Assembly: GCA_001683735.1 (NCBI GenBank)
Contig: LUGG01000006.1
Coordinates: forward strand, 1,946,027-2,010,026
Length of the DNA: 64,000 nt
Source of the DNA: Grifola frondosa
Lineage: Eukaryota; Basidiomycota; Agaricomycetes; Polyporales; Grifolaceae
Direction: 5' to 3'
The notes under the pieces were generated by a model. It was not told the DNA's origin and searched no databases. It saw only the letters and a list, made by a program, of their open reading frames with translations. Numbering within the stretch: the first letter of the stretch is position 1; each line of letters starts with the position of its first letter. The translations under genes and the position numbers were made by a program. This document shows, piece after piece, positions 41,603 through 64,000 of the stretch.

Positions 41603-41653
41603 TATCCAATCTCGTGTGCCATTGAGCCCATTCAGTCATAACATCCGTAAGTA

Positions 41654-41960
41654 ACGGACAGCCGGGGATCCAAAATACTGCTATTCACGGAACAGCCGGG
41701 CCCGGCCGGGATTCAAATTATACCTGTGTATGTGGATGGGCCGGGGTTCAAATATACCCATAGTCATGGAGGGGCCAGCATGCAAAATATTCTCATAATC
41801 ACGGAAGGGCCGAAGAATGCATCAAACCCGTCAACATGGTGCAGCCGGAAAGGAGAATAAATGTATGCTAGGGGTTTGCGTATGGTTTTGATTCCCATGA
41901 ATCTCGAGCGGCCGGGATTGAATCATGATTATTGTAGGGCCATCACCATATGATCATGGT
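41654..41960 (+). repeat. Left inverted end with repeated GGCCGGG-TTCAAAT units
   Basis: Units of the form (A/T)GGA-x(1-2)-GGCCGGG-x-TTCAAAT recur about every 30-40 bp (near 41654, 41688, 41734, 41767, 41803 and 41909), with decreasing fidelity. They look like binding sites for the transposase or for an element-encoded protein. The part from 41684 is mirrored at the right end. Confidence 0.6.
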
Positions 41961-42951
41961 GTGGCCAGCATCATTCATGATCCTGATCACACACATCTCA
42001 GGCAACATCACAACCAACCTTTTATATACAGTTTCACTTTCACAGTATTTTACTAATGTCCAAGCCGGCACCCGGGATTAATGATCCCCATCCGGGATTT
42101 GAGATACACATTATGCATCAATGCCGATGGACCAGTACCTGTGTGGCTTAACCCCATCATCTCGATAATTGTGCTAAGGTAACCGGTGTTCATGATTGTG
42201 GGTCAGGGTTCATCCCATAATACATCGGCATTCACATTCAATGTGGCCGGTTTACAAAAACATTAATCGGTTTTCATTGGGAGATTGCGAAAGCCGGTTC
42301 CTCTCATGTGAATCCCGGACATATCTACATTGCATTTCTTGATTGATCTCATCATGTGATGGCTTTTTGATCCCTTATCAATCACGCAGAGGATGTACAC
42401 AATTCCCAGTCTTTTGAATGGCCTTTGTACTATTGGTGGATATTTGCAATACAATTGCCGGATCTTTGGTGCTTCTAACTTTGTGGGACTGCATGGCGCA
42501 TGTCATGCATGGTTTATCCATCGGGCTCCGCGTGCATGAAGATAGCATTTTTATCCATCTGTGCTTCTCACTATATTTGTCCCAGGCTTTTTGTATGGTG
42601 GCATTCAGTTCAAGAAGCATGGAAGATGAGACTCATCAAATTTTGGTCTCACCGTTTCAAACCCCGAAAACCACCAAAATTCCAAGTTTTGGATACATAA
42701 TGTTCCTGCAGCCCAATATCGTATGTTTATTTTAGTGTCATATTTGGTAGGTCATCATTAAATTGGTGCTCACATACATCTATAACAGTGACACGATTGA
42801 TCGTCGGCGAAAGATGTGCATCTATTTCCACGGACCTCAGACACCTATGTTGAATACTTTATCATGTACACCAACACATCTTCCACATAAATAATATCAT
42901 TCCAGTTATATAGAGCTCTCCAGAGATCGATTCTGTCATCCTTCTGCCATC
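41961..42951. other. Left subterminal region, no gene seen
   Basis: It contains further CCGGGATT words (42070-42110) and degenerate frames only. The C1 gene starts at its right edge. Confidence 0.4.
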
Positions 42952-43592
42952 ATGGATAACGTCGCGGCTACTCTCCGTCGTGAACCCACCATGTTTCCAG
43001 CAAATGACCGTTTTTTTTTCAACTTTGTGGAATCCAAGGTTTTTGAAATTATTCGCAAGCGGTAAGTGACCGGTTTTTAGGTGATATATACTAAATCTTT
43101 CCTAGCAATGGCCCCTATGCGGAATGGTTCATTGCTGAAACGGAACAACGCCAGGCGGAGGCGAATCAGTTGGAAGGTGGCGTGTTGGATAGGGTGAAGG
43201 ATGTGATGAGGAGGTCCACCGTGATGGCTGCGATGTGTGCTCGGATTTCGAACGAGGAACCGCAGATTTTCGCTGAAGATGTTCCCACCATTGAGGTGTA
43301 CGTCGGGTTTGCAACAGCTATTGCAATGACGCAATCGGTTTTGGTAAGATTTCCTTTTATTCCATTGGCAAATATGTTGACATTGATTATCAGCTTTTCC
43401 TAGGCCCCGATGCTGCCGGTTCCCCAGAGTACATCGCCCCTCAAACCCCGCCCCCGCCGCGAACGCTCCTCAGTGGGTATGGGAGCTTCGGTTCACCCAG
43501 CTCGCCGAGCGGCTATTCTGAAGCCGGAGGATCTGAGGCGGAAAGCCATCCTTCTACACCATACGCGCAAACGCCGGTCCGGCGGAGCATGA
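42952..43592 (+). CDS. Small accessory protein C1, function unknown
   Basis: Start at 42952 (MDNVAATLRREPTMFPANDR). Intron 1 begins at GTAAGTG near 43061 and ends at CTTTCCTAG near 43106, giving KR-NGPYAEWF. Exon 2 encodes an acidic, probably helical segment (EQRQAEANQLEGGVLDRVKD). Intron 2 runs from GTAAGA at 43344 to about 43403. The last exon has either an Arg/Pro-rich tail ending RKRRSGGA (43592) or, in another frame, a Ser/Gly/Pro-rich tail ending at 43609. C2 near the other end has the same layout (short FPxNxxFF start, helical exon of about 75 residues, low-complexity tail). No family is recognised. Confidence 0.5.
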
Positions 43593-43609
43593 CTGGTCAC
43601 TAGGCAGCA

Positions 43610-44464
43610 TGCCGAGTGTCCACCGATCTTCTCCCCGGCGCTTCCAATGCCACGATCCGACGATTTTTCAAACGCCATGCCGAAGAACCGGGCTTTTTGG
43701 TCGGCTGAACATTTTTGTTTTCTTGGTGGGGAGAAAGGAATTGCCATTGCTCCCGGTGTATTTGTATCACATATCAGAATCAAATCTTTCTGTGAACCTC
43801 GGTAATCCTGCCCAAATTCAAGTCAAAACCATTGAGCTATAGAATATCGGTATTCACTCAGTCCCTGCTAAGATTCCACATTATGCCTGCGGGATTTGAT
43901 GGGAATACCTGGAGTCGTGATGGATTGGAAGGACTGCCGAACATATTAAAGCCAATGAGTCACCATATCAGTCTGGACATGTAGGTATCTGGTTTTGACC
44001 GGTCTTGACAGTGAATCACTTGTTCAGCTAAATGACTCGTCTGCAGTCAATACTCGGCTTTTGTAGGCACTGTCATCAAAGCCACCGGCCTTCACGATGA
44101 TAGGGCTGAGTTTCACATTGTATCGTGAAAGCCACGTGTTTCAATCTGATATTTAGTAAGTGATGAAGAATATCTGTGATAACTTTGAAATCAATCATCT
44201 GGTGATAATGCATCTTTCAGGTTCAGACCCATTTCAAATGTTGTGGGTAATTCCCAATGAATCTCTGGTTCTAATGTTCAACATCATCATCCATCATATC
44301 TCTTCTGACAACCACCACCGCAACATACGCCCTATCCAGCTAATCACCAGTCACCGCCATAGACAAATCCCATAAACCGACTTCGAAGCCAGTCCCACAT
44401 CAGCATAATCTCAATCTGCAGCTGAAAATATGAAATCCGGTCTGCTTCAACAGTATGGGAAGTT
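43610..44464. other. No gene supported
   Basis: Short frames only, between C1 and the 3' end of A1. Confidence 0.35.
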
Positions 44465-44470
44465 TCAGGA

Positions 44471-46491
44471 CTAGAGCTTACGTGAAAGGGCTTGGGTGAT
44501 AGCTTCAACAGCATCATTATAGGCAGCAAGCTGCTCCAAACTGGCTTTGGCCCCGGTTTCGATCTGTTTGCACCCAGTAAGACAAACCAACATGCAACAA
44601 AGCTACACTTGCCATCACTCCAGCTTGTGGCAGGGCTTTATCATGCCCACCCAATGTCAGAACTTCGGGTAGTAGGATGGTGTTCGTTAACTGGGCAATT
44701 TTTTGCGTTTCATCCCGGAATTCATTCCAAATGTTTATGCTGTTGGTATTCCAATGTGATGGTGGGCGAATTACTTGCTGGTTATCCGTTGATCTAGTAG
44801 TACCAGGAGGGGAGGGGTTGGCAACTGGAGAAGGCGGAACTAGTTCTGTATAAACATCACTATCGCTGGTGGCATCAGAATCATTCATTATTCCCCCTGT
44901 TTGCCAAATCCGAGGGATTGCAGTCTTTCGGCGTTTGGCAGGATAAATTCTTCCAGTTTTGGGATCGACAATGCCGACAGATAGAACTGAGCTCTCATCT
45001 GCTTCCAGATTGCCGACCTTTGAGGTACCTGATTTTCGACATTGTAGGTTAAACAGATAAAATAATATTCTGACTGACCCCTGACTGGAATGTCTTGGTT
45101 GATGGGAGTGGATTTCGATCGACTTCGACCCCCGGCCTTCCCGGGTTGCCCATCATGAGCTCCAGCTTCTTCGGTGTTCACGTAGTTTGAAAGCCGTTCA
45201 TCCTCTTGCTGATCCCAAGCTATCAACAGCAGCTTTTCAAGATCTACATTGCGAGACGGAAGTTTCTCTCCCCTTGCCAAGTGTGCCTCCTGTGCATGGA
45301 CTTGCTTCTCCAGCATCCATGATGGTTTCATGTTCTGTTTTCGACCATGAGACTACAGGAGGTCTTATTCTTCCTGCAGTTCATGCAAGTAATGCTACCA
45401 TCAAAAATATAGCATGTTTCCTTGCGGGTTGTGCACTTTTGGCAGGTAATTTCCTGTTAGCTATGTTTAGCAGTTGAGCATCCGGAAATAAGCACTGCTT
45501 CACCGAAAGTTTTAAAACCGGCCTGGGATGTCTCTGCCCGGGTTTGGCACGCTGACGCAGTTTGATCGGTATTGGGCGATCACTGACCAATGGAGTTGGA
45601 CTATCGCTATCTGATGGGAGGAACAATGGTTCATGTGGTTTCGGCTTCGTGCTAGTGGGTTTGAAACTAGCAGATTTATCCTCACTCATGCTGACAGTTC
45701 TCTCCTTCCTGGCAGTAGATTTCTTGCCTGCAATTTACAACTGTAAATGCAATTAGTAAGAATATACAACTTGCATCACTTACTAGCCAATGACTGTATA
45801 TACACATCCTGCATCATCTGCCTTCGCTGCGGCTGGAGTTGGATGACATGATCTGGCTCCTGCATGAAGGTGTCGGCTTCCATCTCCCCATCATTCACAT
45901 TTGCATTGCGCGGCTTTTTTGGTGAGTTGTTTTCCGTGTAGTGTTCATGAACACGTTTTTTAGCAGCAGGGCCGGGGTTCATGCTGGCAGTGTTTCCCAT
46001 CCCCGTGTTCAGCAGAGGTGCAGGGACCCAGTCTTCAGAATCTTCTCCCTTTTAGTGTTCGTTATTGAGAAAGAAAACCAACATACAGGCCTTCCACCAG
46101 GAATTGATGTCCTTCGTGAGCTGGGATATCCTTACTGATGGCTTTCACCCAGGGGTGGCAATTAATCCGGGGATCTTCGGCATGAACAGATTGTAAAGTC
46201 TTGACTCGCTTTTCTTTCCATGCATCCTGAGCCTCACATATTGCACTGAGAAGTACAGATGGAATTCGATATTGCTGTTTTTTGATGTTCATTGCACACA
46301 TAATGCGAAATAAGATGTCCTGGAGAAGGTATCAGAAAGACTTCGAGCAAAAGGGAGTCACCTACGAATTCCGTCCACCAGCGGATTTCGAACTCTTTAT
46401 ACACTGGGCTTGACAAATTCGGAGCCATCTTTAGGGCCTCACACAGGGATCCGGCATTGGTGTTGAAATTCTTGAGATCAATGTTAGACAT
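44471..46491 (-). CDS. Zn2Cys6-cluster protein A1, candidate DNA-binding regulator
   Basis: Start MSNIDLKNFNTNAGSLCEAL at 46491. The first intron falls after WWTEF, exactly where A2 has one. The next exon reads IPSVLLSAICEAQDAWKEKR and AEDPRINCHPWVKAI, matching A2. A cysteine array at about 45440-45350 has the spacing C-x2-C-x6-C-x8-C-x2-C-x6-C (TCQKCTTRKETC...TCMNCRKNKTSC), as in fungal Gal4-type binuclear zinc clusters. An intron with a CTAAC-like branch and AACAG end lies just before it. Downstream exons are Lys/Ser-rich, with a C-terminal helical part (ASLEQLAAYNDAVEAITQAL). It is divergent from B1, sharing a promoter region of about 180 bp. Exon joins after the zinc cluster are uncertain. 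Confidence 0.6.
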
Positions 46492-46669
46492 GATTGATAA
46501 TATAAAGCAGCAGAGCAGTTTTAGATTTGAGTGATGAAGTGGTGAGGAAAGAGGGTGAATAAAAAGTCACAACTGAGGAACAGGTTATGAAGGATTTCGA
46601 CACACATCACGTGATCGTGGGATGCTGACTCATCAACAATACGTCGGAGTTTTAAGTTGTGAGATAAAC

Positions 46670-47982
46670 ATGAGCCAGTTTCAAACCCTTTCTGAGACCT
46701 CTCTTCCAGCACCTTCAACCAAGCGGTATGTCAACATGTCACGTGCCATCTTTATGATTAAATTTATTTCATTTTTAGGCCGTCACACCTTCATAAACAT
46801 TCCCTCGGCTTTCAGAATGTGTAAGCATTCTGATTTTCACTGGTGCCATTTTTGATGTTGTCCAACCATCACAGCTACGCATAAAAGTATTTATATATTG
46901 ACATTATATTTCAGTGATTTTCTAAACAATGTGGCTTTAGATTCTGTTCATCGTCAAAACCGTGTCATGTTTACGGAACTCAACCGTGGTTCATCTCAGT
47001 CAATTTTCGGCATGAAAACCAGTCTGCCTTCTATGCAGCAAGCCGACAGGGACTCGAGTTTACCAGAGGTGGAGCGGGAGGTTGGAAATCGGTCTCCTAG
47101 TTCAGACCCGGTGGATGATACAATGGGTAATATAGTCTGTCTCAGAAACTTTAAATATAGCTAATTGTCCATTATGTAGACTATGACTTAGGTTCGCCTC
47201 TGCCAGAGGATGTTGATTATGACCTCGGTTCCCCTCCCGAATCCCGATTTATCACGCCAAATTTTGACATAACCTACGACCTCGGTTCTCCACCTCCATC
47301 AGAACCGGATGATGATTACTATGATCTCGGTTCTCCACCTCTTCCACAGCCAGATGACAACTCTGTTTCATTGAGCAAGCCAAATCCTCCACTGAACCCG
47401 GATGCGCTCGACCCCGTCCCAGATGCTGAACATGATTTCGAATGTCCACCGCACTGTGCAGCTCTCAACGCATTTCTTCCTCCACGCCGGATGGTCTATC
47501 CCAATAATCGCGAATACCGAGTCCCTGTTCTGCCAGTCATGCCAGAGTTTCACAAAAAACCGAAGCCGGGTTTCATCTACAAAGAGCAGGTCTGTCATAC
47601 AGCAACAGTCTCACGCGACAACCGGAGATACCTCCTTTTCGAATATCCTCCACATGAGGCTTTCCGGGATACTGCCGAAGAATATTTGCCGGATCGAATC
47701 CGTGTGCGACAACGCATGCTGATTAAATCCCGACGGGATCTCCTGCTCCTCCCGGGAATGACGACAGAGATGACCAAGCTGAAGAGCAGGGCGGTAAATA
47801 TATCGGAGTCTGCCTCCATGGATGAGGTAACATATCAAGCCAGTATGAGTGAAGGGTTTCGGACAGAGCTCCCCTCAGAGGAGAAGATAACTGAGATTCT
47901 GCAGGAGGCCAGTAGGTGGCGGGCTGAGCACGGGATTAAATCACTTAGATTTGGTCTTGAAAATGAAATTGGGGGTGCATGA
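46670..47982 (+). CDS. YDLGSP-repeat protein B1
   Basis: Start MSQFQTLSETSLPAPSTK at 46670. Introns begin at 46727 (GTATGTC), about 46820 (GTAAGC) and 47125 (GTAATA). The last joins ...DDTM to DYDLGSPLP, and B2 has an intron at the same place. Four YDLGSP motifs follow at about 47183-47345, each 12-19 residues apart in Pro/Asp-rich linkers. The C-terminal part is conserved with B2: EEYLPDRIRVRQRMLIKSRR, then SASMDEVTYQASMSEGF. No domain is recognised. Evenly spaced short motifs in a disordered region suggest a multivalent binding scaffold, which is inference. It is divergent from A1. Confidence 0.65.
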
Positions 47983-48133
47983 TGGCCATGTTTATGGGTT
48001 TCAATTTTTCATTGTATCCTTATATAACAGAAAGTTTGAAGACCGTTGCAATGCCAAAAATACACGGTGTTCGGTATTTGAATCAGACAAGTGACATACA
48101 CTGGCTTTAGCATGAAAATATAGACCATTTCTG

Positions 48134-48841
48134 CTATTTGATTTTTTCATAAAGATCCTTCATCACCACCAACATAGTCTCATGACCGGTGGCCTCCTCT
48201 GCTTCTGACTGCTGCAAGGACATCAGCTGCTCTTCCAGAGCCGTCAGCTGGGTGATAAAACCATCCCATTCCTGGCGCTCCATCATGACCGGCTCTCGCT
48301 AAATGACTTTCAGTTATGAAGGTACTGAATGTCGTCGGCTTTGATCCACTCACATACAGTGCTCCCGGGTTTATCCACCACGCTGGAACCCCATCAGTGG
48401 AATTCTCATCCCATGTCCACCACTGGTTGAGCACAGCAATTTTTCGCAGTCCTTCCGGCAAATCTGATGGAGGACCTTTCGGTCGTGGCATCAGCTTGAC
48501 ATCCACGTATGGTCCTGTCGGATCCCAGCATAATGCAGTTGTTGTCATGATGAGGACCATTGGGGGCATGTACATGTCATGAAACCCGGCAAGTTTCATT
48601 TTCCCAAAGGAATTCCGACAATGATACTGACATGGAGCGTCACAAAGGCCGAAATGCGGTTGGTTATGGCACTCACTAATTCACGTTGAAGGCCTTGGGT
48701 CCAGCGGAATTGAGTTATCTCTTTTGGCTCCTTTGGGTAGGCAAGCATCGCCATAGTGATTCTCCATTCCCGAATATCGATTTCCGCAGCAGCACAGCGA
48801 TAGTAAGTGATACGGGCCTCACGGCTGGGAAGTTCAGACAT
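48134..48841 (-). CDS. Accessory protein E, function unknown
   Basis: Start MSELPSREARITYYRCAAAE at 48841. Two phase-0 introns make one frame. GTGAGTGCC...GTCAG removes about 48675-48629 and joins LQREL to YHCRNSFGKMKLAGFHDMYM. GTGAGTGG...TTTAG near 48354-48303 joins NPGALY to REPVMMERQEWDGFITQL. The product is about 210 residues with a Trp-rich middle (NQWWTWDENSTDGVPAWW) and a C-terminal coiled coil (LTALEEQLMSLQQSEAEEAT). It lies downstream of the KDZ gene on the same strand. The splice model is mine; no family is recognised. Confidence 0.6.
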
Positions 48842-49070
48842 GATGCAATGGAGCTGCATATGCAGATAAGTGACCATATATAAGCAGATTGAATTTAAAG
48901 TTCAAACTCCTATTACAGTCCACAATAGACATGTCAGCTCCATTGTCACAGTTTCACATCACCGGCACTCAGGCCTTCTGACCATTATGGGAGTTTATAG
49001 TTTATTTTCAGATTAAATGCCAGAAACAGAAATACACCATTTATAACAGGAAATATGAACCACGTCATTG

Positions 49071-52000
49071 TCACAAAACAGAAAGATCTTTGTTCAAAAC
49101 ATCACCAAAGTCTGCCACTGCAGAATCTGCAAAAGATTTCCACATTGCAGACTGTTTTCTGGCATAAGACTGGTGACCATTGCTATCGGATTGTTCTGCT
49201 CGGGTTTTCCAGATCTGTGCTTGGTGACGAAAGAATCTGATGGTCCACTCCATTTCTGAGGTGACGATAATGTATTCCTCCTTCCAGCGATCATATCTTG
49301 CCTTGGCCCTGAGCCAGTTAACTCGATGAACTGCAGACAATAGTAAAAACCAGGATTCAGTAGTATGTGAGATTGACTTACATTCCCGCATCCAGTCACT
49401 TCCGTTGCTGTCTCCTTCCAAATCCATTGTCCAAAACCATGCCAGTGGTTTGTTCCTCAAACCACGGGTATGAGCTTCCACCAAAGCCGTTTCTACTTTG
49501 AAGTCCTCGGGTTTGAGAGTCTGGTATCGATCAATTATCGTCTTTCGATCTTCTCGCCTTTCATCTGCATGGGCTGGATAAAAGGATAGGAGAGCCTGAC
49601 GCGCCAGGCTGTAAACTCGAGATTGCTGAGCCACCTCAGTTTGGACGAGATGCACATCATCCCATGATCGGAGTTTCTCTCGCTGGCTATTTGCTTCTCG
49701 CACCCGAGTTCGAAATAAGAATGCTTTATACCCGAGAGCCAGCCGGATTCGATGGAGAGCATCATCCATTTGGCCTTTCCGAAGTGCTATTTCTTCCTTG
49801 GCGACAGTTTGGAGTTGAAGTCTTTTACACTCCTCCCAACCTATGGTGGATGGCATATTGAGAACAAATTTCTCGGCGGGTACCTCATCCTGGATATTAT
49901 CCATATCATCAGGTTCCGTATCACCCTCACCAGTGTCCTCCCATTCGGCATTCACCTCCATGCCGTCGTCCTCGGTATTCAACATAAATTGAATAGCTTG
50001 TTTTTGGAAATTGTTAATGCGGGTTTGAAGACGTTGCTGACGATCCAAAACCAGCAACCTCTCACTGACTGTTGGACTTCGGCCCGCTTTTCGTATCTCT
50101 GTGGCTAACAAGGACCTTAATGCACTTTCAGTTTAAAACAAATTTCACATATTTTTCACTCACTGTGACTCCTGTATTCGAATTCCAGATGCTAACCAGG
50201 AAACCGCGCCCCTTGTGAGTCCCTCACTCTGCTCAGCTTTGGCAAGTTCTAATTGAATCTGATTCCGAGTGGGAGCTGTTGTAAGCAAAATCAGATGATT
50301 CTGGCCCATTTCTTACATCCAAAACTCATCTCACTGACCTTCACGCTTTTTCACTTCAAAGATGTCCATTACTTCCACATTTTTGTCTCTCTCTGACATA
50401 GCGCAGAGATACTGTTCCATCCAAATGTTGAGATCATCTGGATCGGCATTGAGATTGGCCTGTTCTAATGCTTCCCCATGAAGCTTTTGGCCCGCTTCGG
50501 CCTTCCGATACTTTCGGATTAGGGACGGAACTGAGTTTCGAACAGTGAGTGAATGCCGAGAATATTCATGGTCTGTCAACTTACTGGATCTGGTCAACTT
50601 CTTCCAATTTGAATCATTCATGTGATCATCAATGACTTCTTTCCGATGTGCTGTTGACATTCCACGTGTGCTTCCAGAAATGTGATTGAGCGGAGCCCAG
50701 AGGGTTTCGATAATTTCTCCATCAATTTGACCGGCGCCCTCAATGAAATTCGGGGAATATCTTGCAAAAAATTTGTCTTGATGACCATGAACGTGGAAAA
50801 GCCCAATACCGTGCAATAGCTTCAAACCGGGTGGCATCTTGAGGTATGGATTCCCTGCAAACCGGGCTTTCAGGTGCTTGCTGTACTGGCACATGATGTC
50901 ATAAAGTAGCAGGACCAGGGTGATTCCGCACAGTGTAGCAAAAGCTCCATTCAAGGTGTAATCCATGTTCTTTTGTCTATTGTTCATCAGCATCGAATAC
51001 CGGGTCCCAGTGATGTGCTTACCTCTCTCCCTTTTGAAAGTCAACAACAGAATGAGGTACAAAGCATCCATGACGAGCACATGCAGCAGCCCCAATGCCA
51101 GTGGCTTCTAAGTTGTGACGATTGGCATTTGCCTGGTTTACTGCTGCATGGTCATTGCAGGTTGATCGCTGTGCAACTTAAGGTCAGAATAATTGCATTT
51201 CTGCAATGGATGATCTGGCACTTGCCTCCTTTGTTTCCTTTGCAACTTTCAAATGCTGTTTATATTCTCGATCCTTCACCATGAACCCTTCTCCATCACG
51301 AAGCACAACATCATCATTCGGCTTTCGCATCTTCATATGCTCAGCAGAGAAGTTGCCATCCATCACAAAGCTCCGCAGGTATTTCCATCTGTAAACTCAT
51401 TAATACCATCTTCAGACCGGGATTCAGACTAACCTATGAGGATCAAGTTCCCAATCAGGTGGCAGATTAACTCCAGGTTGGGGACAGGTCGGACAGAAGA
51501 TAGCATGACTCCCAGGTCCTTTCACAGAATCTGGATTGTGTGCTAACCCACTCCATCTTGCGGTTTTCAGCTCTCTCCATTGCCTACTTGTTCGCAGAAG
51601 TTCCCGGTACCGATCCTTCTTTCTTTGATCAGCAACTTGAATATTGAGTCCCGTCGATACTGGGAAAACATACCGGCACTGTGTGTGGAAAGCCAGGAGA
51701 TGTAATCCTTCGGAGTTTGTTATAGTAGTTCAGAGCTGCGGTTTTGCATTCCTTATTGTCAAGCAAGAAGTCGTCCAGTAGACGAAATGTGAATGCAGTT
51801 TGCGGATATTGATGGCTGGCAGGATAGAGACCCATGTCCAAAAGTTGCATGTCTGGTTCCACGGCATTGGGACATCCACACCAGTGAACATCCAAATGAT
51901 GAATCCCGCTGGTATCAACAATTACCATGGTCCGCGAAGACTTTCCAACAGCTGGTGTGATGCTGGGCATCTCTTCTTCCATCCGGTTTTCATCCTCTCC

Positions 52001-52626: not shown

Positions 52627-52695
52627 GGGCTCATAGTCCCTGCCCCAAAGCTGTTTATATGTATGGCCCAAAAATCATTTTTCAAAATACACATG

Positions 52696-53945: not shown

Positions 53946-54186
53946 GATGTGCTGGCAGGAAGGATGAAATTTGTCCTAATCAAACAGTCATCTAAATAGG
54001 TGTTAAATTACATTTACTGTAGAAAAACATCTTCACATTGCGGAAATGGTTGAATCCGACTCCGGGATTATTGTCAGCAAATCAAATGATTGTCAGCTGT
54101 CAGATGTCACATGCAACTAAATTCTCGAAGCGAAGACATGCTCTGATTTCTTCCTCCTTCTTTTTCACCCCCATCTGCACTCTGAC

Positions 54187-57086
54187 ATGTCTTCCAGAAC
54201 TGTGATCATCTTGACCGCTACAGAACTTGAAGCTTTGGAAGGTTCTGCTGAGACACATCTTCTGGGTTTAAAGTCTGAACGAAAGCGAATTCGAAAGAGA
54301 CTTGCAAAAGATTTTTGTGAAGGAAGAAAAGAGGCTGAGAAGGGATTTCACGGAAAGATGCTGCAGGTAAGCATGACGGAATCAAATGACAAAGACGTAT
54401 TATTAACGGCATTATCAAAGATGATACATAGGTGGTTTGCCAAAAGGGAAAGGGGCAAAGCCGGGAGCAGTGGCAAGTCGAGTGACAAGTATTACCTTAC
54501 TCGCAAATGGACCGGCTACCGGGTTTGGAGGGCAGAACACTCTCAAGACATCATTGATCGAGCAGCGGAAATCAGTCAAGCCCGACCGGGATCAGCAGAT
54601 TTTATCAAAGCATACCAGCCAGCTGGTAGCTATCTGTACAGTCAGGTTGAGTTGGGGACACGAAGAAAATATGATGAAAAAGCCGATGAATGGAATGAGA
54701 GAGGCCCACCTGTGAAGGTGCAGAGGATGTGAGTTTCCTTAGATCTTGGCCTTCGCGATGTTCACGTTTTTGAATAGCGTCGCGGATGAACAATTATCCG
54801 AGATGTGTGCCAATTTTGCTAGAATGGTCAAGCTACAAACGAATGCCAACATCTTCATGCTTACTGGACATGAAGATGCTAATGGTGAAATGGTAGTGAT
54901 CAGGCAAGTCCAATATGAGCATTCTTCAGACTTTTGTTTGACCCGAATGCCGGCAGGCATGATTTCAACCACAAGTTCAGTGAAACCCGGTGCAAGTTTA
55001 CTCAGATGTATCCGGAGTGGCAACAGAAACATATGCTCTTTGGGGACAGTTCACTCATATGTGTTTCCGTAAGCTGAGGATTTTTACAATGGCTTCCAGC
55101 TTACATTGTTCGTAGACCCAGAACAAGCAGCAAAAGTAGCTGAAGATAATCCTGCGATGACCGCGGCAAGTGTAAAACCGAAGGTGGTTCCGTATCCATT
55201 TGGGCTTGACGATGCCGGTATTCCAATTGTGCCACAAGTGTTAGACGTCCCTTTGCTGGAAATGCAGAATTTCATCCGAACATTCATGGGCATTCACTGG
55301 GGTATGCTTAAAAGCCGAAACATGGCGTCTTTGCTAAATAATTCTTAACCAGGTTTGGCTTGTGGAAAAGAAAAAAAACATGGGATTCCTTGGGCCAGGC
55401 TGAACAAGGAAGGATTTGATCGATATATCGAACCTGGTTCTCTTCCGGAAGGCATGACATTTACTGATCCATCAAAGATTACCAGGGACTCTGCAGAACT
55501 GTTAGTCCGGTATTGGCAAGGACGTCAGATGAATCCCGACATCATCAATGTCTTTCGGTTCTCACATGGAATTGCAGCATCGATTCGAATCAATGCCGTA
55601 TACTCCCCAGAAACCGGACTCCGCTGGCACTCCAAAAAGGCTGACCATAACTCAAATGCAAGGGAAAGGGGAAGGCCAAAGCCGTTGCAGGCATCATGGA
55701 TGAGTCGAACAGCAATGAGGCATTCAGTGGGGATGAGTTTAGATAATGACAGTTCTGAAGATATGGATGGGGACATGGACGAACAGGAAGTTCCTACCCA
55801 ATCCCGTAAGCCAGTCCAAGCAATTCTTCCAATGCCGGTGGCCAGAGTAAATACGAAGGTGGCAAAGGACGAGTCACCAGCTTGGGCAGGCCAGAGTGGT
55901 CATCTCCGTCGCGTGTTCCTCATGGCTTTGTCTGATGAGGCCTATATCAGACATTCATTCGAGTCATCACGCGAATGCCGGTATGTATAATCTTGCTTAA
56001 ATGTTTTTAATTAATAACATTGAGCATGCAGGGTGACCTGGAAACAGCAATGCCGGATGGAGCTACAACTCTAGCGTGGGATTGGACTTTCACATATTCG
56101 GTTCTTCCGCCATCATTCCATCTGGACGTTGAAACAATGCTCAAATTTCTCGCTGACTGGAGGTTCTGGTGGAAACATGGGAGTCCGACATTTCGAGTTT
56201 CAAGCCCGAAAATGCAATCCTCGCGGCATTGAGCATTGGGCTTGTGCTGCGAGATCTCAAAATTGCGCAGTTTGTGGTTGCCGATCCAGATGACACTTCG
56301 ACCGATATTCCATCTCATCTCTATTCCACAGTGCATACCTTCCAGGATGTGCAGAATTTGCTGGAGATGTGTGGCCGGATGACAAGATCTTGGATTACGT
56401 GGGAGGAGTATATTGAGGCCCAAAACCCCACAGAAACTTTTATAGATCAAGGTGTTTCCATTGTGAAGAGGAATTCAGCAATTGCTGTCAGAACCGCCAT
56501 TGCCGGGCCATCCGGTTTCAATGGCAAACATTCTCCCAAACCTGCACAAATCGTATCAGCTATTAAGCCACGACGGCTCACCGCTGGGAAACCTGTTGGA
56601 CGGATACAGCAATTTTACATTGATATTCTTGCTGAGACAGAAACAGTGCATCCACAGCAAGCTCCATTGCTACTGGATGATGATCATATGTCCATGGCAG
56701 ATGTTGATGTTGAGGATCAGAGCCGGTTCAATATCGATCCCAATTCCATCCCCAAAGTCAAAGCGAATATGGCATTTCTGCCTTCTATCTCCCACCATGA
56801 GCCATCACCATCAGACATTGGTGAGCCATCACCGGCTCGCAGGATGGTAACTCGGGGAACGAAGCGGAAATTGGATGAGGAACATGATGCGAGACAGAAC
56901 CCAATGCTGGACCACGGTCTTCGACGCCAAACCCGCGCTGCGACAAAGGCTGAATGCCCCATTCCCTCCGTGAACAACACCAGAAAACCACCAAAGAAGG
57001 CAATTGGTCGAAAGCCTGTCCAAAGCCTGCACCTCGACGCGCAGGCAAGAGGTGAGAGATCTGACTATTTTGATGCGATTTTCTGA
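54187..57086 (+). CDS. Accessory protein D, multi-exon, function unknown
   Basis: Start MSSRTVIILTATELEALEGS at 54187, divergent from the TET gene with about 240 bp between. Exon blocks: KSERKRIRKRLAKDFCEGRK; RKWTGYRVWRAEHSQDIIDR and GSADFIKAYQPAGSYLYSQV, ending GPPVKVQRM (54730); FTFLNSVADEQLSEMCANFA (54765-54825); HDFNHKFSETRCKFTQMYPE after a possible GC-AG intron (about 54903-54957); VDPEQAAKVAEDNPAM (55110); ACGKEKKHGIPWARLNKEGF (55358-55418); then a long C-terminal region with MLDHGLRRQTRAATK and basic patches ending at 57086. The RKWTGYRVWRAEH block is reminiscent of HMG-box-like proteins near mushroom TET genes, but this is a weak impression. Exon joins near 54732 and 55070 are uncertain. 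Confidence 0.5.
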
Positions 57087-57230
57087 CATAGGCATAGATG
57101 ATATGTGAATCATTTATATGAACTTTTGATACATGACAGTAATGATATAGATATGCGGCACTGATCTGGAGTTCGACATTCCGGTTTTGAGTGGATTCAC
57201 TGACATGTGCAACTAAACTAGTTCATATAC

Positions 57231-58257
57231 TTATTGACCATGTGGCTGAACTGCCTTTCCTTTTAAATCCACTTGTCTATCCACCTCATGATCAATCTTG
57301 CCAAGTTTCAGGGCTTTATCCAAGCTATCCTCCTCCTCGGCATTAGACGGGTTTCGGCTCGGCTTTGTGAACTGGATGCAATGAAGGCCGGACTTGTCCA
57401 GAAACTTGCGATCTTCATATGTGACATAACGAAGCTTGCTGATGGAGGGTAGCACCTCCACAAAAGATGGGTTGCTATCAATCTGGTGCTCCACCTCATC
57501 CATAGATGCTGACTGCGCCAAAGCCTCTGCTCTAAGCAAGATCTGCCCAACATCTGCGGTCATTTCCCTGAACTGGGAGATTGCATGCCGGCGTTTGTAC
57601 AGCAACTGGGTTTGGACTCGAATCCGATCGGGCAGATATTCTAAGGCTTGCTCATTCATGATGGTTTCTGAAGGATTCTCAAATGTAATGAATGTCGAAC
57701 CATCATGGCCTTCAGGAAGTGGAGAGCCGAGGTCATACTCTGGCAAAATGGCGCTGGGGTCAATACCATCAAAGCCTGGGCTGATAGAGGGGGAGTGTAT
57801 GGGTGAACCAAGGTCATAGTCGATGTCGATGAATGCCGGGCTGACAGCACGGGATTGAGGTGGAAAGCCGAGATCATACTCGAGGCCAGGACTGGGTGCA
57901 TGGAATTGGGGTATGGGACCAAGGTCATACTCTCCAGTGGCCGGGCTGGGAGAGCGGGATTGGGGTGCAGAACCGAGATCATACGCTTCAAAGACTGGGC
58001 TGGGAGAGCGGGATTGGGGTGCAGAACCGAGGTCATAACTATCATTTATGGATCGTGGAGAATTTAATTCATAGTCTTTATGAAGGATGATTAGCTAAAA
58101 ATGATTAGAGATAACATTTTACTTTACCCATGTCGATATCGGCTTCCGGTGTTGGACTAGCAGTCAGATTTCCCAGTTGCATCTCTACCTCCATAGAACT
58201 CGAGTCTCGGTAATATTGCCCACGGCCAGCGACATCGGTTTTCATCTGAGACGGCAT
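57231..58257 (-). CDS. YDLGSP-repeat protein B2
   Basis: Start MPSQMKTDVAGRGQYYRD at 58257. One intron (GTAAAG...TAAAG, about 58127-58076) sits at the position of the last B1 intron and leads into DYELNSPRS. Then six more motif copies (YDLGSAP twice, YDLGPIP, YDLGFPP, YDLGSPI, YDLGSPL) are spaced 17-27 residues apart, each followed by Gln/Ser-Pro-rich text such as QSRSPSPVFEA. The C-terminal part matches B1: LEYLPDRIRVQTQLLYKRRH and SASMDEVEHQIDSNPSF. It ends KGKAVQPHGQ. It is divergent from A2 with about 475 bp between starts. It has seven motifs against four in B1, so the array changes in number. Confidence 0.68.
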
Positions 58258-58731
58258 TCAAATAGGGGAATTTCCTGCAAAATGTGAGCAAAAAAACATT
58301 GGAATGCAGTGTTGTTGGGCCAATACCTTGCTGTTCAAAGTAGTGGTTGGATAAGATGAATGCCGGTACGAGTTTAACTTTCTAACAAATGATTGTTGTT
58401 AGAAGTCAGGTATGATCCCTAAGTGAATGATAACTTACTACCTGGATGGGTTGCAGGAAGAGAGGGGAAAACAGCATGGGGTTCAGACTTCAGTCTTTAT
58501 CTCACGTGCCTGAAATTAGCGAACTCCGACCGGTAAATGGGTGGAGATGGCCGAAAATAATGCCGATAGAAATCAACATCTCACGATCACGTGATATCTC
58601 CCAAATCCTTCATAACCCCGAAGTCCCTTCTCTCACGTCTTTTCCTCCTCTCACTTGAAACATCACCAAGTCCATTCAAACCAGCCGACACGCTTTAGTC
58701 TTTACCGACATCCAGCTCTTTTTTTGATACC

Positions 58732-61262
58732 ATGTCTGAAATCAACGTCAACACTTTCAACACCAATGCCGGCTCCCTCTGTGCGGCTTTGGAAATTGCT
58801 CCGAAACGTGATCATGAGAGGTATCCTGACTTTGCTGCCCAATGGTGGACTGAATTTGTGAGTCACCGGCTTTGAATGGGAGTGGTGCTAATTTCATTTT
58901 TTAGAATGCTTTGTTCAGGATGATGAGGGAACTCGCCCAACAGGGAAAGCGCTTTCAAATTCCGGCCCCGATTCTCAGTGCCGTATGCGAGGCTCAGGAC
59001 GCTAGCAAGGACCATCGAGTCAAGAATCTGAATGCCATCAGTGCCGAGGACCCCCGTATTGCAAAACACGCCTGGGTAAAAACCGTTGTGCAGGAAATCC
59101 CAGCTCACGAGAATGTGAACGTTTGGTGGAAGGATTGTAAGCGATTTTGTTTTGACTTCAGACTGTGCTGACAAAAGGCGGCAGATATCGAACCCCGGGT
59201 TCAGCCACCTAAGCCCAAGGCTCCCAAACCCGCACCACCAGCCAAGAAGATGGGCCGATCTGGTCAACGTGCTGAAGACCGGGTGGAAAGGAACTCAGGC
59301 AAAGAGGGTGATGTTGAGATGGCAGACGCCCCTCGTGACAAAGGAAAGGGGGTTGCAAAACCCGGTGTGTGTCAATCTGTTCGATATACAATCGTATTTA
59401 CACCTCACTTAAGTGTCCAAACCCGCCAACCCATCCAAAACCATCAAACATCCCCCAAAATCGAAGGAAATTATATCAAGTGAAGACGATTCCTCAGTGG
59501 AAGATCTGCCTCCAGCTCCTCCAGAGCAGGCAAGCCGAAAGCCGCAGAGAGGCGCAGGCTCAAAGTCAGAGGTTCTCGAGGACTTCGTGGTTCCTGATGA
59601 AGATGAAGAAGATCCAGAGGGCGACTACATGCCAAAGCAAACGAAGGTCAAGCTGGAAAGCCTGGTGAACGGCGTCCGCCGCCAAAGTTTTTGCGTTCTG
59701 TGAGTGATGATGCGGGATTCACGTTCATGCCATTCACCACCGGCGTTCAGGAAATCACTTGCCAGCAGTGCATCACTCGCCATGAGACGTGTTATGTCTT
59801 TACCAGCAGCATTATCTGCATGAACTGCCGGAGGAGCAAAACATCGTGCAACCTCAGTGGACGCCGTGATAAAAAGGGAGGAAAATGGATGTGGGCAGAG
59901 CAAAACCGTTCGAGGGAGGAACGTTTGGCAGAAGGGGGATACTTCCTCCTCGCAATCTTCAACTGGAAGCCGCACTCGCCAAAGACTGGAACGAGCTAGA
60001 GCAAGACCGGGTTGAAAAGGAGCTGAAACGGGTTGCAGCAAAAGCAGCAAAAGCAGCCAACGAAAGCTCATCGAAACCCACATCAAAGGGGGCTGGCAAG
60101 AAAAAGCCGAGCAAAATGATAGGTGAGGTGCATCTATCATTTACTTTCACTTATTCACATGACTTTCAGAGACAGAGATGGATCCGAAAGGTGGAAAACG
60201 AAAGCCGCGCACCAAACCTGCAGGTGAGTCATTTTTGGTTGAGCGCTGTGAATATTAAAGTCGAATCCCACACAGAGCATCCATCAGAGCAAGAATTGGA
60301 TGCTACGCCACCCAAGAAGTTTATCAAACGCCCAAATCCGTTTCCCCTCAGGAGGAGGAAGAGGAGGAGATTGTTTCACCTCCACGTCCTCCCAAGCACA
60401 GTCGCGCTAGATGTGAGAACCAACATTTTTGAGTATCTATTTCACTGAAAGCCCAATCCCACACAGCAATCTCAGAATCTGAAGAATCTGAGGCATCAGT
60501 GCCACTCCTCCGTCAAGCACAATGGCCGAATGCCGGCCCATCAGGGGATGAAGACCAGGAGATCACGTCATCAGCACGGCCAGCAAAGCGCCGCAAAGCC
60601 ATGAGTGAGTATTACCTTATTCTCTCGGTATTCAGCTGAAAGTTCAAACCCACATAGCTCATCCTGATGTCGAGGACCATGACATCGAGATGAATTCTCC
60701 GCTCTTAGATGGGGACAATGGCATCAGACCCAGGTCTTATCAAAGTCGGGAGATAGAGCTGCGACCAAGTGTCGCAGCAGAAGACCGGGCCAAAATTTGG
60801 GAGCAATTCCAGGAATCTAATCGTGTCATGGCGCATTTCGTGGAAACCATCATTCCCCAGATCCAGGTGGCCATTCCACAGATACAATTGGCAATTCCGC
60901 GACTGGATGCAATGGAACCGATGGTCGACGAACTTATGCGCGGCCAGATAATTGCCGACAAAGCCATCACCAAGCTTGCCAACATTGAACCCCGGCGAAA
61001 AGCCGAGATCGAGCACCTTACTATGGAGAATGACATGCTGAAAGCCGTAGTTGAGAATCTTCGAATCACGGTCCTCGACAGTTCCAGCCGACCTCATGCT
61101 GAAGCCTCCACTCAGGTGCAGCAGGCCGGGATTCAAGCAGATGGGATTCTTCGCGTGGACAAAAGCACATCACCTCTGCGATCACCAGAATTGGGACCCA
61201 GTGATAAGGACATTGTAGTGAAAGATGGGTCGGGTTTGGAGGCCAAGTCTGCAGTGGTTTGA
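58732..61262 (+). CDS. Zn2Cys6-cluster protein A2, candidate DNA-binding regulator
   Basis: Start MSEINVNTFNTNAGSLCAAL at 58732. The intron after QWWTEF matches A1. Exon 2 reads IPAPILSAVCEAQDASKDHR. A Pro/Lys-rich exon (QPPKPKAPKPAPPAKK) and an acidic exon (EDFVVPDEDEEDPEGDYMPK) follow. The zinc array at about 59758-59855 is C-x2-C-x6-C-x8-C-x2-C-x6-C (TCQQCITRHETC...ICMNCRRSKTSC). After it the frame needs a shift at the G-run near 59935, where LAEGG meets ILPPRNLQLE, or an unrecognised intron. Later exons are short and basic (KKPSKM, GGKRKPRTKP, AKRRKAM). The last one (60655-61262) holds repeated IPQIQVAIPQIQLAIP and a coiled coil. It is divergent from B2. Confidence 0.6.
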
Positions 61263-62032
61263 ACAAGGACGTCGATATGCAGGACACTTAGCATGTTTCA
61301 TTCATACCAGGCTTCTGATGTTTCGCCTATGTAACATTTTCAATTCACTTAGTGAACATTTTGCTTTGCTTCTGCCTATTTGACACCTCAAAGCCGATCT
61401 CGGTTTCGCGTTCATTCAATTCACAGTCATACACCTCGGGTTTGAGATAGCGGGTTTGGGATATGTATGTTATTCAGTTGGCTTTGAACCATAATCACTC
61501 GATTTGTGTAGCGTCTTTTAGGACTGAACGTTGTAGCACTGCAATTCGGCCAAACCCTCGAAAAGAACAGGCTAGAAGCAGCAACTCAATTGGACTTCAA
61601 AGAACAGCCGGGAATGACTTGAAGCGCTGAAGATGTGTTGTAAGCATCATTCAATTTCTGGCCACCTCTCGGCACATGATTGATGTTTTTATAAATATGT
61701 CCAGTCAGATGACAGCCACATCGAATATAATGGAATATTCATTTGAATGTTCTTCTCATCTTATCTCTATGAGCCAGGCTATCGGGATTCACCGTGTCAA
61801 AATCTGCTTGACTTCCTGAACCCAATTCCATCTGAAAGAGGCACGGCCTCAGTCTGCCAGGTAATTAATACGATCCCAAAAACCAATTTGGAACTATCAT
61901 TTGATCATCAAATTCTTCACCAAATTCTGAGGTCTACTAATCTGGGAAATTAGGGTTCTCATGTTTAAAATATCTCACCTGCTTTCACTTATATAAGAGT
62001 CGCTACTCGAGATCGATCCAGCAACTTTTACC
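61263..62032. other. No gene supported
   Basis: Spacer between A2 and C2. CCGGG words and AAAGCCG motifs recur. No convincing frame is seen. Confidence 0.35.
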
Positions 62033-62914
62033 ATGCAATCGCCCCGTACACCCACCGCTTTTCCTGTGAATGAAGTTTTTTTTGCGCCCGTGTGACACGC
62101 ATGGTCGTGCACCTCATGCAGGGGTAAGTGGCTGAAAAACATCATATAAAATACTAATTTGTATTTTGTCACAGTTTGTATTCTGAATACCTTGCCCGGG
62201 TTCCAGTTCCAGAACGCACTGCTGCAGTGTCCCGGATTACAGAGAATGTGCAACTGCTGCTCCATTCGGCTGAGAGGATGGAAGTCTTAGTGGGGATGAT
62301 GAATTTCGAGGGAGAGTTGGATGGTGACGCTGAAACCGAGTTCATGATGCTCTTTTCCCATGCACTGTTGATTGTTTTAGAGGAACTATATCCTGTGGAT
62401 GAGGTAAGCTCAATCCCATCGGCTTTCAGGTTTTACACCCATGATGCTACAACAGAATGACATGCATGCAGAAGTCGGGTCCACGTCCACCCAAAGCTCA
62501 CCGCATGAGGGTGGAATGGAAACGGATGCCGTCTCCCCTCAATCCCAGACGACGGGTTTCGCCAGCAACCCCCAAGAAGTCCAGGACATCTTTGCCATCA
62601 CAGCCTTGGAGTCTACGTCGGACCACGCTGTTGCGCGCGGCCAAACAACACCCTCCTCCCCGAATCCCGGTCAGGATAATCTCACCCACTACATGATCAA
62701 CCAGTTCCTCCAGGGGAGGCCTCTTCCACGTTTCGTGAAGCGCAGGCAGCTGAAGATGGTCAGGGTTCGGCGGTTGACATATGAGCCAGGAGAGATGGCT
62801 GATGATGTTATGAGTGATTCGTCGGAGCCGATGTCCTCGCCAACCCCGGTGCCCGCAGACCAAGTTCGAAAGCCGTTCCCGGATTTGAGGGAGAAACAGA
62901 AGAAAGATCTCTGA
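62033..62914 (+). CDS. Small accessory protein C2, possibly broken in exon 1
   Basis: Start MQSPRTPTAFPVNEVFF at 62033. A run of eight T at about 62081-62088 leads to an in-frame TGA; one base fewer would open the frame up to a GTAAGT at about 62124. Exon 2 (from 62174) reads LYSEYLARVPVPERTAAVSR and LLLHSAERMEVLVGMMNFEG, ending LEELYPVDE. A 52-nt intron (GTAAGC...ACAACAG) at about 62404-62455 follows. The last exon is Ser/Pro/Gln-rich with HYMINQFLQGRPLPRFVKRR and ends EKQKKDL at 62914. Layout parallels C1. No family is recognised. Confidence 0.5.
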
Positions 62915-63363
62915 GCATTATTCTCCTGTATTGCGCGTAACGTTTGTACAATGTATTGATTTGATCAGCATTCAATGTAATCGTCCATGAACAATGCTCC
63001 AAAGCCATCTGAAGTGGAAATAAACAAGTGAGACCACTACATAGCAGTCATTTTGGTCTTCATCACCCTCATAGTCTGGTTTCACTCATATCGGCTTTGG
63101 TGATCACATTTTGGTATGTTACAATGTATGAAACTATGCATCGGAAATAAGATTAAATCAGAATTATTAATAAAGATAAATTGAATTAATCTCTTATCAT
63201 TTCATTCTGAAAGCCACATCTATAGTGAGATCCACCTCTCAAGTATGAAAAGGTCCTGGCTTCAGCATGGGATACATCGGGATTCATCTTTAGAGTGCCT
63301 GGTCTTCATGACAAAAGAATCGCATGCGAGATCAAAAAATTTATTAAAGTCCCCGGCTTTTAC
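62915..63363. other. Right subterminal region, no gene seen
   Basis: AT-rich spacer without a supported gene. Confidence 0.4.
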
Positions 63364-63631
63364 AAAGAATAATCGAATTTCATAGCTAGAGCAATGGCTT
63401 TCATAAAGAATGCCGAATTACAGCACTCATTGCTTCAATCACAAAGCCTGGTGAAGTTTTTGATTCTGGAGGCGGAACATGGCATCAATTACACAGCAAA
63501 AATATTGGGCTTTCGGCATCAACATATCGCGGTGCAAGGTGCACCGGGTTTCGTGATTAAAGCAACCAGTGCTGTAATTCGGCATTCTCTATGAAAGCCA
63601 TTGCTCTAGCTATGAAATTCGATTATTCTTT
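63364..63631. repeat. Inverted-repeat unit with 64-bp arms, MITE-like
   Basis: Arms at 63364-63427 and 63568-63631 are complementary with one mismatch (AAAGAATAATCGAATTTCAT at the outer end). The spacer is 140 bp. No ORF or clear target duplication is seen. It may be a MITE inserted near the end of the giant element, or a structural part of it. Confidence 0.7.
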
Positions 63632-63849
63632 ACCAAAACTGGACACCTTGACCATAGAGTCTGGTTACTTTAGCTATGAAGGCTGAGGTAGACAGATGAA
63701 ACCCAGCTTCCATGAAAGCCAGTTACTTTGATCATGATATTGACAATGGTCGGGTTTCAGTTATAGATGAGTATGGTAAGCTGAATAACTATAGTTCAAC
63801 GTGAAAACTGACCAAAAACAAACCCACTCAAGATACGGTCTTAGTGTGG

Positions 63850-64000
63850 CTATCAATTTTTTTCTTCCTTCCGGCTGTGCCGTGTTTATGGGGTTTAATG
63901 CAATGCCCGGCCCTTCCATGATCATGGGAATATTGAATCCCGGCCCTTCCACATACACAGGTATAATTTGAATCCCGGCCGGGCCCGGCTCTTCCGTGAA
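63850..64000 (-). repeat. Right inverted end of the giant KDZ element
   Basis: This is the inverted counterpart of 41684-41850. The window ends inside it, at the base matching 41684. Confidence 0.8.

What the first reader, a model, noticed from the sequence alone, without database searches (positions are those of the whole stretch)
41684..64000. A more than 22-kb KDZ transposon with matched ends, carrying a TET/JBP enzyme and eight accessory genes
The inverted ends (43 bp perfect, about 150 bp related) enclose the transposase, the dioxygenase and genes A1, B1, C1, D, E, A2, B2 and C2. KDZ-TET linkage is known, but a unit of this size with a Zn2Cys6 protein, a motif-repeat protein and small partners is, to my knowledge, not described as a system. 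A plausible idea is that the element brings its own DNA demethylation and recruitment machinery to escape silencing.
Basis: partly seen in the sequence, partly recalled or inferred. Interest (0 to 1): 0.92.

Follow-up and report, generated by a model that had tools for sequence, protein, structure and literature searches.

The report
Giant multi-gene jumping element in maitake
A 22-kb jumping gene in the maitake mushroom carries, besides its cutting enzyme and a DNA-demethylating enzyme, a set of unknown genes, several of which recur beside the same two enzymes in older relatives, so the element looks like a self-contained kit for moving and perhaps for escaping silencing.

Summary
Confirmed and extended. 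The window ends a contig of Grifola frondosa. It sits at two fully seen sites with different perfect 7-bp target duplications, plus a half copy elsewhere; the full sites differ by 17 mismatches (BLAST), 6 of them clean isolated SNPs, so it moved recently. It encodes a KDZ/CxC2 transposase and a CcTET-like dioxygenase. D and E recur with KDZ and TET in 12 other clusters (about ten after likely double assembly), AB in six. A 15-bp terminal motif occurs 38 times genome-wide, its control 0. Every copy has some broken frames, in different genes. TET-carrying Kyakuja transposons are published (PMC12730594); a conserved multi-gene set was not in the text I read. The anti-silencing role is inferred; cross-species synteny could not be tested.

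The parts
41617..41623 (.). Target-site duplication TGCCATT (left copy; the right copy is seen in contig C38)
   Evidence: second site (C18) has GTATAGT on both sides
41624..64000 (.). Transposon, 22,451-22,457 bp in full; the last 61 bp lie beyond the window (contig end)
41624..41638 (+). 15-bp terminal motif GAGCCCATTCAGTCA shared by the family
   Evidence: 38 exact hits in the genome, 0 for the reversed control; alignment
41624..41778 (+). Left terminal inverted repeat, about 155 bp imperfect; contains 43 bp perfect at 41694-41736
63907..64000 (-). Right terminal inverted repeat, the part inside the window; 43 bp perfect at 63948-63990
42952..43592 (+). ORF G, 178 aa, weak model; start resembles F
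   Evidence: low score; F-G hhalign E 0.002 over 34 aa
44471..46491 (-).
45349..45456 (-). Six-cysteine cluster of AB1 (Zn2Cys6-like spacing)
46967..47982 (+). Gene C1, 316 aa, YDLGSP-type motif repeats
   Evidence: C1-C2 hhalign E 2e-19
48134..48877 (-). Gene E, 212 aa, 3 exons; conserved in relatives (similar exon plan in the C2 relative)
49071..52623 (-). KDZ transposase with CxC2 cysteine cluster, about 1063 aa, 8 exons (start uncertain)
   Evidence: KDZ 4.9e-52 (profile 5-217 of 217), CxC2 1.4e-25; model
52696..53632 (-). TET/JBP dioxygenase, at least 294 aa as read with copy C38 (conservation runs upstream to about 53930)
   Evidence: Tet_JBP 2.5e-22; CcTet 6.6e-30
54187..57055 (+). Gene D, about 855-885 aa in copies C18 and C38, divergent from TET; conserved in relatives; no Pfam match
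57231..58257 (-). Gene C2, 324 aa, YDLGSAPQSRSPSP-type motif repeats, divergent from AB2
   Evidence: tandem repeat 57905-58037
58732..61291 (+).
   Evidence: an annotated hypothetical protein of G. frondosa covers 67% at 81% identity
59748..59855 (+). Six-cysteine cluster of AB2, C-X2-C-X6-C-X8-C-X2-C-X6-C
   Evidence: Pfam Zn_clus only 10.4 bits against cut-off 21
62033..62914 (+). ORF F, about 250 aa in two or more exons, model uncertain; parts resemble predicted genes of the C2 relative
   Evidence: direct search finds it only in this element
63346..63649 (.). 108-nt inverted repeat, 86%, 88-nt loop, near the right end

Best explanation
A large, recently mobile DNA transposon of the KDZ superfamily, closest to the TET-carrying Kyakuja lineage, that moves by a DDE-type transposase acting on a shared terminal zone (15-bp tip plus CAGCCGG/CCTGT..ACAGG-type subterminal motifs) and makes 7-bp target duplications. 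Shown: unit, ends, duplications, recent movement, gene content, and recurrence of D and E with KDZ and TET in relatives. Inferred: the TET enzyme oxidises 5-methylcytosine that the host places on the element, keeping promoters and ends usable; D, E, AB and C are standing parts of the element's machinery, AB (six-cysteine cluster) being the likeliest DNA-binding factor that targets the enzyme or transposase to the element.
For: Two complete insertions with different perfect 7-bp duplications and different flanks; 17 BLAST mismatches in 22,422 bp between the sites, of which 6 are clean isolated SNPs. KDZ 4.9e-52, CxC2 1.4e-25, Tet_JBP 2.5e-22; TET aligns with CcTet including HxD and the Gly and Asp positions given for CcTET 331 and 337 (positions from PMC12730594). 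38 exact copies of the terminal motif, control 0; 20 of them fetched, and the sequence after the motif follows one plan. D within 6 kb of TET in 21 of 25 mapped loci, TET within 5 kb of KDZ in 18 of 26, E within 20 kb of KDZ or TET in 20 of 28, E within 3 kb of a terminal motif in 14 of 28, own copies included. Third-position mismatch excess between element and the C2 relative in D, E and TET and between AB1 and AB2, strongest at the cysteine cluster (0.17/0.17/0.53). CpG transitions 34 of 222 against 38 of 950 at other C/G in 15 relatives' ends. DNA_methylase-family matches in the host, 5 rows at 4 places. In Laccaria and Coprinopsis, oxidised 5mC is enriched in transposons (PMC8889193, passages).
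Against: No methylation or expression data for this host. No copy is seen with all frames open. D, E, AB, C and F match no family above cut-off (G was not scanned); models of D exon 1 and of the AB2 homologue are poor (pLDDT 42.5 and 47.9). C and F are found by direct search only in this element. AB hits in relatives are weak (E 2e-5 to 7e-4). E changes side and orientation between elements. Two relatives bounded by inverted terminal motifs (C2, C32) lack matching 7-bp flanks. CpG counts come from related sequences and are not independent. In Laccaria and Coprinopsis only a few TET genes showed weak expression (PMC8889193, passage); KDZ copies in Cryptococcus were unmethylated or nearly so (PMC12810828, passages). 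The two Laccaria Kyakuja families are described with 5'-CA..TG-3' tips and no TIRs; this left tip is GA and there is a 155-bp TIR.
Confidence: 0.85

Rival explanations
1. Passenger cargo: a KDZ-TET transposon that picked up unrelated genes by chance; they hitch-hike without a role in transposition or anti-silencing.
For: No accessory gene scanned has a recognisable domain above cut-off; C and F are not found elsewhere in the genome by direct search.
Against: D and E recur beside KDZ and TET in diverged elements, with protein-level constraint; AB sits between D and E in six other places, one site probably counted twice (C2/C45).
Confidence: 0.2
2. The accessory proteins serve transposition itself (end binding, synapsis, target choice or transposase regulation, as second proteins do in En/Spm or Harbinger elements, recalled), and demethylation is TET's job alone.
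For: Ordered subterminal motifs at both ends; an AB-C pair near each end in mirror image; a six-cysteine DNA-binding-like cluster.
Against: No direct test; KDZ elements of 9-11 kb in Cryptococcus were caught inserting into a reporter gene, and no TET gene is mentioned in the passages I saw (PMC12810828), so a transposase may suffice.
Confidence: 0.35
3. Assembly artefact or nest of several elements rather than one unit.
For: The window copy ends at a contig end and the copies differ by many small indels; another locus in this genome looks nested.
Against: The same 22.45-kb structure is present at a second site inside another contig with its own duplication.
Confidence: 0.03

Closest known systems
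TET+ Kyakuja DNA transposons of Agaricomycetes (Kojima 2025, PMC12730594; read: abstract, text parts 1-4 of 7, figure legends, passages)
   Same: KDZ transposase plus AG-type TET/JBP gene, 7-bp target duplications, reported from Polyporales
   Different: Those from Laccaria are described with 5'-CA..TG-3' tips and no TIRs; here GA..TG and a 155-bp TIR. No accessory genes of Kyakuja and no such size appear in the text read; supplements not seen
KDZ elements of Marasmius oreades (PMC8290104, passages read)
   Same: KDZ elements in a mushroom, with TIR motifs characterised by the authors
   Different: Details are in a supplement not seen; no gene set or TET is described in the passages read
KDZ1-KDZ3 of Cryptococcus neoformans (PMC12810828, passages read)
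   Same: KDZ transposase with CxC cluster, long TIRs (139-241 bp), currently mobile
   Different: About 9-11 kb, 4-8 bp duplications, CxC1; TET not mentioned in the passages seen
TET+ IS3EU and PHISTA elements of rusts (PMC12730594)
   Same: TET gene together with further proteins (alpha-kinase in IS3EU, an unnamed third protein in PHISTA)
   Different: Other transposase superfamilies; partner genes not compared by sequence
Vandal/VANC anti-silencing in plant MuDR elements (cited in PMC12730594; details recalled)
   Same: Works-like comparison: transposon-coded factor reversing its own silencing
   Different: No sequence relation shown; recruitment not tested here
Fungal Starships (start of abstract of PMC12134995 seen in a search listing)
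   Same: Large element with many genes
   Different: Tyrosine-recombinase elements; here a KDZ transposase, TIRs and short duplications

Membership tests
KDZ superfamily | KDZ transposase domain (PF18758), full length | tested here: met
   4.9e-52 over profile 5-217 of 217 (spliced model from the window copy)
KDZ superfamily | Associated CxC cysteine cluster | tested here: met
   CxC2 1.4e-25
KDZ superfamily | Inverted ends and short target duplication | tested here: met
   155-bp TIR; TGCCATT and GTATAGT duplications
TET+ Kyakuja lineage | 7-bp target duplication (Zisupton and Dileera 8 bp) | tested here: met
   two sites; values from PMC12730594
TET+ Kyakuja lineage | AG-type TET with HxD, Gly and Asp as in CcTET | tested here: met
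   alignment to 8jkk (same region of 7vpn)
TET+ Kyakuja lineage | 5'-CA..TG-3' tips, no TIR (as stated for two Laccaria families) | tested here: not met
   left tip GA, right tip TG; 155-bp TIR
TET+ Kyakuja lineage | Transposase falls in the Kyakuja clade | not tested
   no reference Kyakuja, Dileera or Zisupton proteins were at hand; hence filed as KDZ, Kyakuja-like
Starship | DUF3435-type tyrosine recombinase (recalled) | tested here: not met
   no such match in the Pfam scans of 20 of the 59 listed ORF pieces, covering the main genes
Zn2Cys6 fungal DNA-binding cluster (AB) | Cysteine spacing C-X2-C-X6-C-X5-12-C-X2-C-X6-8-C (recalled) | tested here: met
   C-X2-C-X6-C-X8-C-X2-C-X6-C in both copies
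Zn2Cys6 fungal DNA-binding cluster (AB) | Pfam Zn_clus above cut-off | tested here: not met
   10.4 bits against 21, 7.7 in the longer piece; so a look-alike, not filed as a member

The most novel reading that the evidence does not exclude
This KDZ-TET lineage carries a dedicated multi-protein anti-silencing machine: TET as the eraser, D and E as fixed partners, and a mirror-duplicated, divergent AB-C pair near each end as end-specific recruiters that bind the subterminal motifs, clear CpG methylation there and license the transposase. It would be a transposon-coded targeted demethylation complex.
Probability: 0.22. Interest if true: 0.85.

Novelty: new variant of a known kind. Interest (0 to 1): 0.62.

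Why it matters
Fungal transposon TET enzymes have been proposed to erase silencing marks, which PMC12730594 says is not experimentally validated. This element is a very recently mobile example in an edible mushroom, with defined ends, duplications and a conserved set of candidate partners, so the idea becomes directly testable. If D, E or AB target the enzyme, they would be a natural sequence-guided DNA demethylation system.

Tried and rejected
Short-element or host-gene reading: rejected. Counting C38 as a separate copy: rejected, it overlaps C6 with the same flank. C45 likewise appears, by its coordinates, to mirror the end of C2, and C8 shares a flank with C2 at 3.516 Mb, so cluster counts are upper bounds. 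Homologues of D in the protein database: none; AB2 found only one protein, that of G. frondosa itself; I take that database to be poor in fungi (not tested), so absence means little. Fold clues: both models too poor for a fold search, none made. HMG-box idea for the D N-terminus (from memory): no Pfam support. AB2 against the AB-like gene of the C2 relative by hhalign: E 0.24, not significant; C against the C-like gene: E 0.015, weak, score 24.4 against 10.2-16.9 in 5 shuffles; G against the C2 relative's F-like gene: nothing. TSD for the C2 (3.491-3.516 Mb) and C32 relatives: not found. tRNA and Rfam scans of the window: nothing.
Full report
What was checked. Searching the own genome with this end gave 7 hits, four left and three right ends. 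The window is the last 64 kb of contig C6, which stops at base 64000. In the C38 and C18 copies the unit runs about 61 bp further and ends ...GACTGCAAGGTGTG; on the left it begins at 41624 with GAGCCCATTCAGTC. Full length is 22,451 bp in C38 and 22,457 bp in C18.

Mobility. The flanks change exactly at these ends. The C6/C38 site has TGCCATT on both sides (both sides are seen in C38), the C18 site GTATAGT on both sides. C38 overlaps C6 over 23.3 kb including the outer left flank, so it is the same site assembled twice. C28 holds only the left 3.5 kb, with another flank. The window and C18 copies differ by 17 mismatches and 48 gap openings in 22,422 aligned bp (BLAST; 25 mismatched columns by MAFFT). 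Only 6 substitutions separating C18 from both C6 and C38 stand clear of other differences; 5 are transitions (a seventh is private to C38). The element moved very recently.

Intactness. The copies differ by many small indels. Different genes are open in different copies: D and AB2 in C18 and C38, the KDZ domain, C1, C2 and E in the window copy. C6 and C38, though one site, disagree with each other, so assembly error is the simplest cause for much of this. No copy is seen with all frames open, and AB1 was not read through in any.

Host. The AB2 gene matches hypothetical protein A0H81_14673 of Grifola frondosa on a contig of 124,246 bp, the length of C38. G. frondosa is in Polyporales, one of the orders in which PMC12730594 reports TET only in Kyakuja.

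Core genes. The spliced transposase model (49071-52623, minus) matches KDZ at 4.9e-52 over nearly the whole profile and CxC2 at 1.4e-25; the dioxygenase (52696-53632, minus) matches Tet_JBP at 2.5e-22 and the CcTet structure sequences at 6.6e-30, with the metal-binding HxD and the Gly and Asp that PMC12730594 links to 5mC and 6mA activity.

Accessory genes. D (54187-57055, plus) is one gene of about 855-885 aa, head to head with TET. AB1 and C1 on the left mirror AB2 and C2 on the right: both pairs are divergently transcribed, and the two arms are inverted. C1 and C2 are related at E 2e-19. AB1 and AB2 differ mainly at third codon positions (cluster 0.17/0.17/0.53). For C1/C2 the third-position excess is slight (0.45/0.36/0.50). 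Two end-proximal ORFs, F and G, are weak models. None of the accessory proteins scanned (all but G) has a Pfam match above cut-off.

Relatives in the same genome. I searched the genome with KDZ, D, AB, C, E and TET (the D search scored 64 of 83 candidates, so it is a lower bound) and mapped mainly one row per locus (22 KDZ rows at 55% identity or more plus one at 37%, out of 94; 25 of 92 D rows, 13 of 27 AB, 5 of 11 C, 28 of 49 E, 26 of 31 TET; the dropped rows are other exons of the same genes or distant KDZ subfamilies). In this map D lies within 6 kb of TET in 21 of 25 loci, TET within 5 kb of KDZ in 18 of 26, E within 20 kb of KDZ or TET in 20 of 28. These counts include the element's own copies and loci that look assembled twice (C2/C45, C2/C8). 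Twelve clusters other than the element's own hold KDZ, TET, D and E (the C32 one with the 37% KDZ), about ten after the two likely duplicates; two more hold KDZ, TET and D. The common order is KDZ and TET on one strand, then D, AB (where found, six places) and E on the other, for example C3:2,320,141-2,332,530. E lies on the KDZ side in our element, in C2:3.13 Mb and in C32. In the fetched relative C2:3,531,001-3,563,620, gene prediction gives KDZ, TET, D, a serine-proline motif-repeat gene on the minus strand, an AB-like gene and E, with other predicted genes between TET and D: D, C-like, AB-like in the same order as D, C2, AB2 here, although the C-like and AB-like proteins are too diverged for a significant pairwise match (the cysteine cluster itself is found by tblastx). 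Codon positions in D, E, TET and KDZ show third-position excess (D 0.40/0.31/0.65, E 0.47/0.36/0.61, TET 0.36/0.24/0.65), with the caveat that poorly aligned stretches were left out (kept: D 295 of 576 codons, E 131 of 199, TET 257 of 271).

Ends. GAGCCCATTCAGTCA occurs 38 times in the genome, four of them this element's own left ends; its reversed control 0 times. Twenty of the others were fetched. By choice they share the 15 bp; beyond it they also share an ordered zone with CCTGT..ACAG, CAGCCGG and TCACAGGCCAGCCGGTCCCGGCCGG-like motifs, and both ends of our element follow the same plan with CCGT..ACGG in place of the first. Our right tip is a variant, CACACCTTGCAGTC, found 3 times, two of them the element itself. 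Half of the E loci (14 of 28) lie within 3 kb of such a tip. Two relatives appear bounded by inverted tips (24.8 kb at C2, 19.0 kb at C32), but their flanks show no duplication, so I do not claim them as intact units.

Silencing. In 15 of the 20 fetched ends (subfamilies with at least three members; five ends left out), C-to-T or G-to-A changes occur at 34 of 222 CpG cells and 38 of 950 other C/G cells; other changes at 2 of 222 and 13 of 950 (Fisher 1.4e-8; cells are not independent). That is the mark expected from deamination of methylated CpG. The host has DNA_methylase-family matches, 5 rows at 4 places. Both fit, without proving, the published idea that transposon TET enzymes counter silencing. 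Against it, in Laccaria and Coprinopsis only a few TET genes are weakly expressed (PMC8889193, passage), and KDZ copies in Cryptococcus carried no or almost no CpG methylation (PMC12810828, passages).

Known or new. TET-carrying Kyakuja elements with 7-bp duplications are published (PMC12730594; abstract, text parts 1-4 of 7, legends and passages read). That text mentions partner genes in IS3EU and PHISTA but none in Kyakuja, and describes no TIRs for the two Laccaria families. KDZ TIR motifs were characterised in Marasmius oreades (PMC8290104, passages; supplement not seen), so TIRs as such are not new. Searches for Kyakuja-Dileera-Zisupton with TET (4 papers), Kyakuja and fungi, KDZ transposase and Agaricomycetes, Grifola/KDZ/transposable elements (12 of 28 listed), JBP/transposase/Coprinopsis/Laccaria (15 of 28 listed), giant transposons and Basidiomycota and Zisupton with accessory (12 of 1,251 listed) showed no such multi-gene unit in the titles, abstract starts and passages seen. 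The founding paper of 2014 and the supplements were not available, so the novelty is provisional: a new variant of a known kind.

Confidence. That this is a single, recently mobile KDZ-TET element: about 0.97. That D and E are conserved parts of the family: about 0.9; AB about 0.75; C about 0.5. That TET counters methylation of the element: about 0.6. That the accessory proteins guide it: about 0.25.

Noticed in passing
window 32537-32974 (-): A second TET/JBP gene piece outside the element (54% to the element's TET; Tet_JBP 5.8e-11).
   Followed up: partly
window 35711-36820 and 38911-39694: Two inverted arrays of a 31-bp tandem unit in a low-GC stretch, like the tandem-repeat ends of another element; similar arrays lie about 5-8 kb from the C18 insertion.
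   Followed up: no
window 205-1650 (+): Plavaka transposase fragment (6.4e-52); the surroundings look transposon-rich, with a DDE_3-like gene at 33660-35560 (6.3e-8) and a predicted retrotransposon-like polyprotein at 17452-19610 (by eye).
   Followed up: no
G000 C38:94611-99169 (in L009): AB-like (32%) and D-like (34%) fragments just outside the element's right end, suggesting insertion beside or into an older relative.
   Followed up: no
G000 C2:3,540,939-3,562,722 (L048-L050, L054): Two nearly identical E genes 21 kb apart in the same orientation; the spacing of 7.7-7.9 kb between a TET fragment and the first E recurs in C24 and C13 (coordinates), so a nested unit seems to have been copied whole.
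   Followed up: partly
L048 1049-1789; L049 8749 to L050 12: A further unnamed small gene family (RAWSG, GxGWN/GHWWN motifs) near KDZ-TET in the C2 relative, not seen among the gene models of our element.
   Followed up: no
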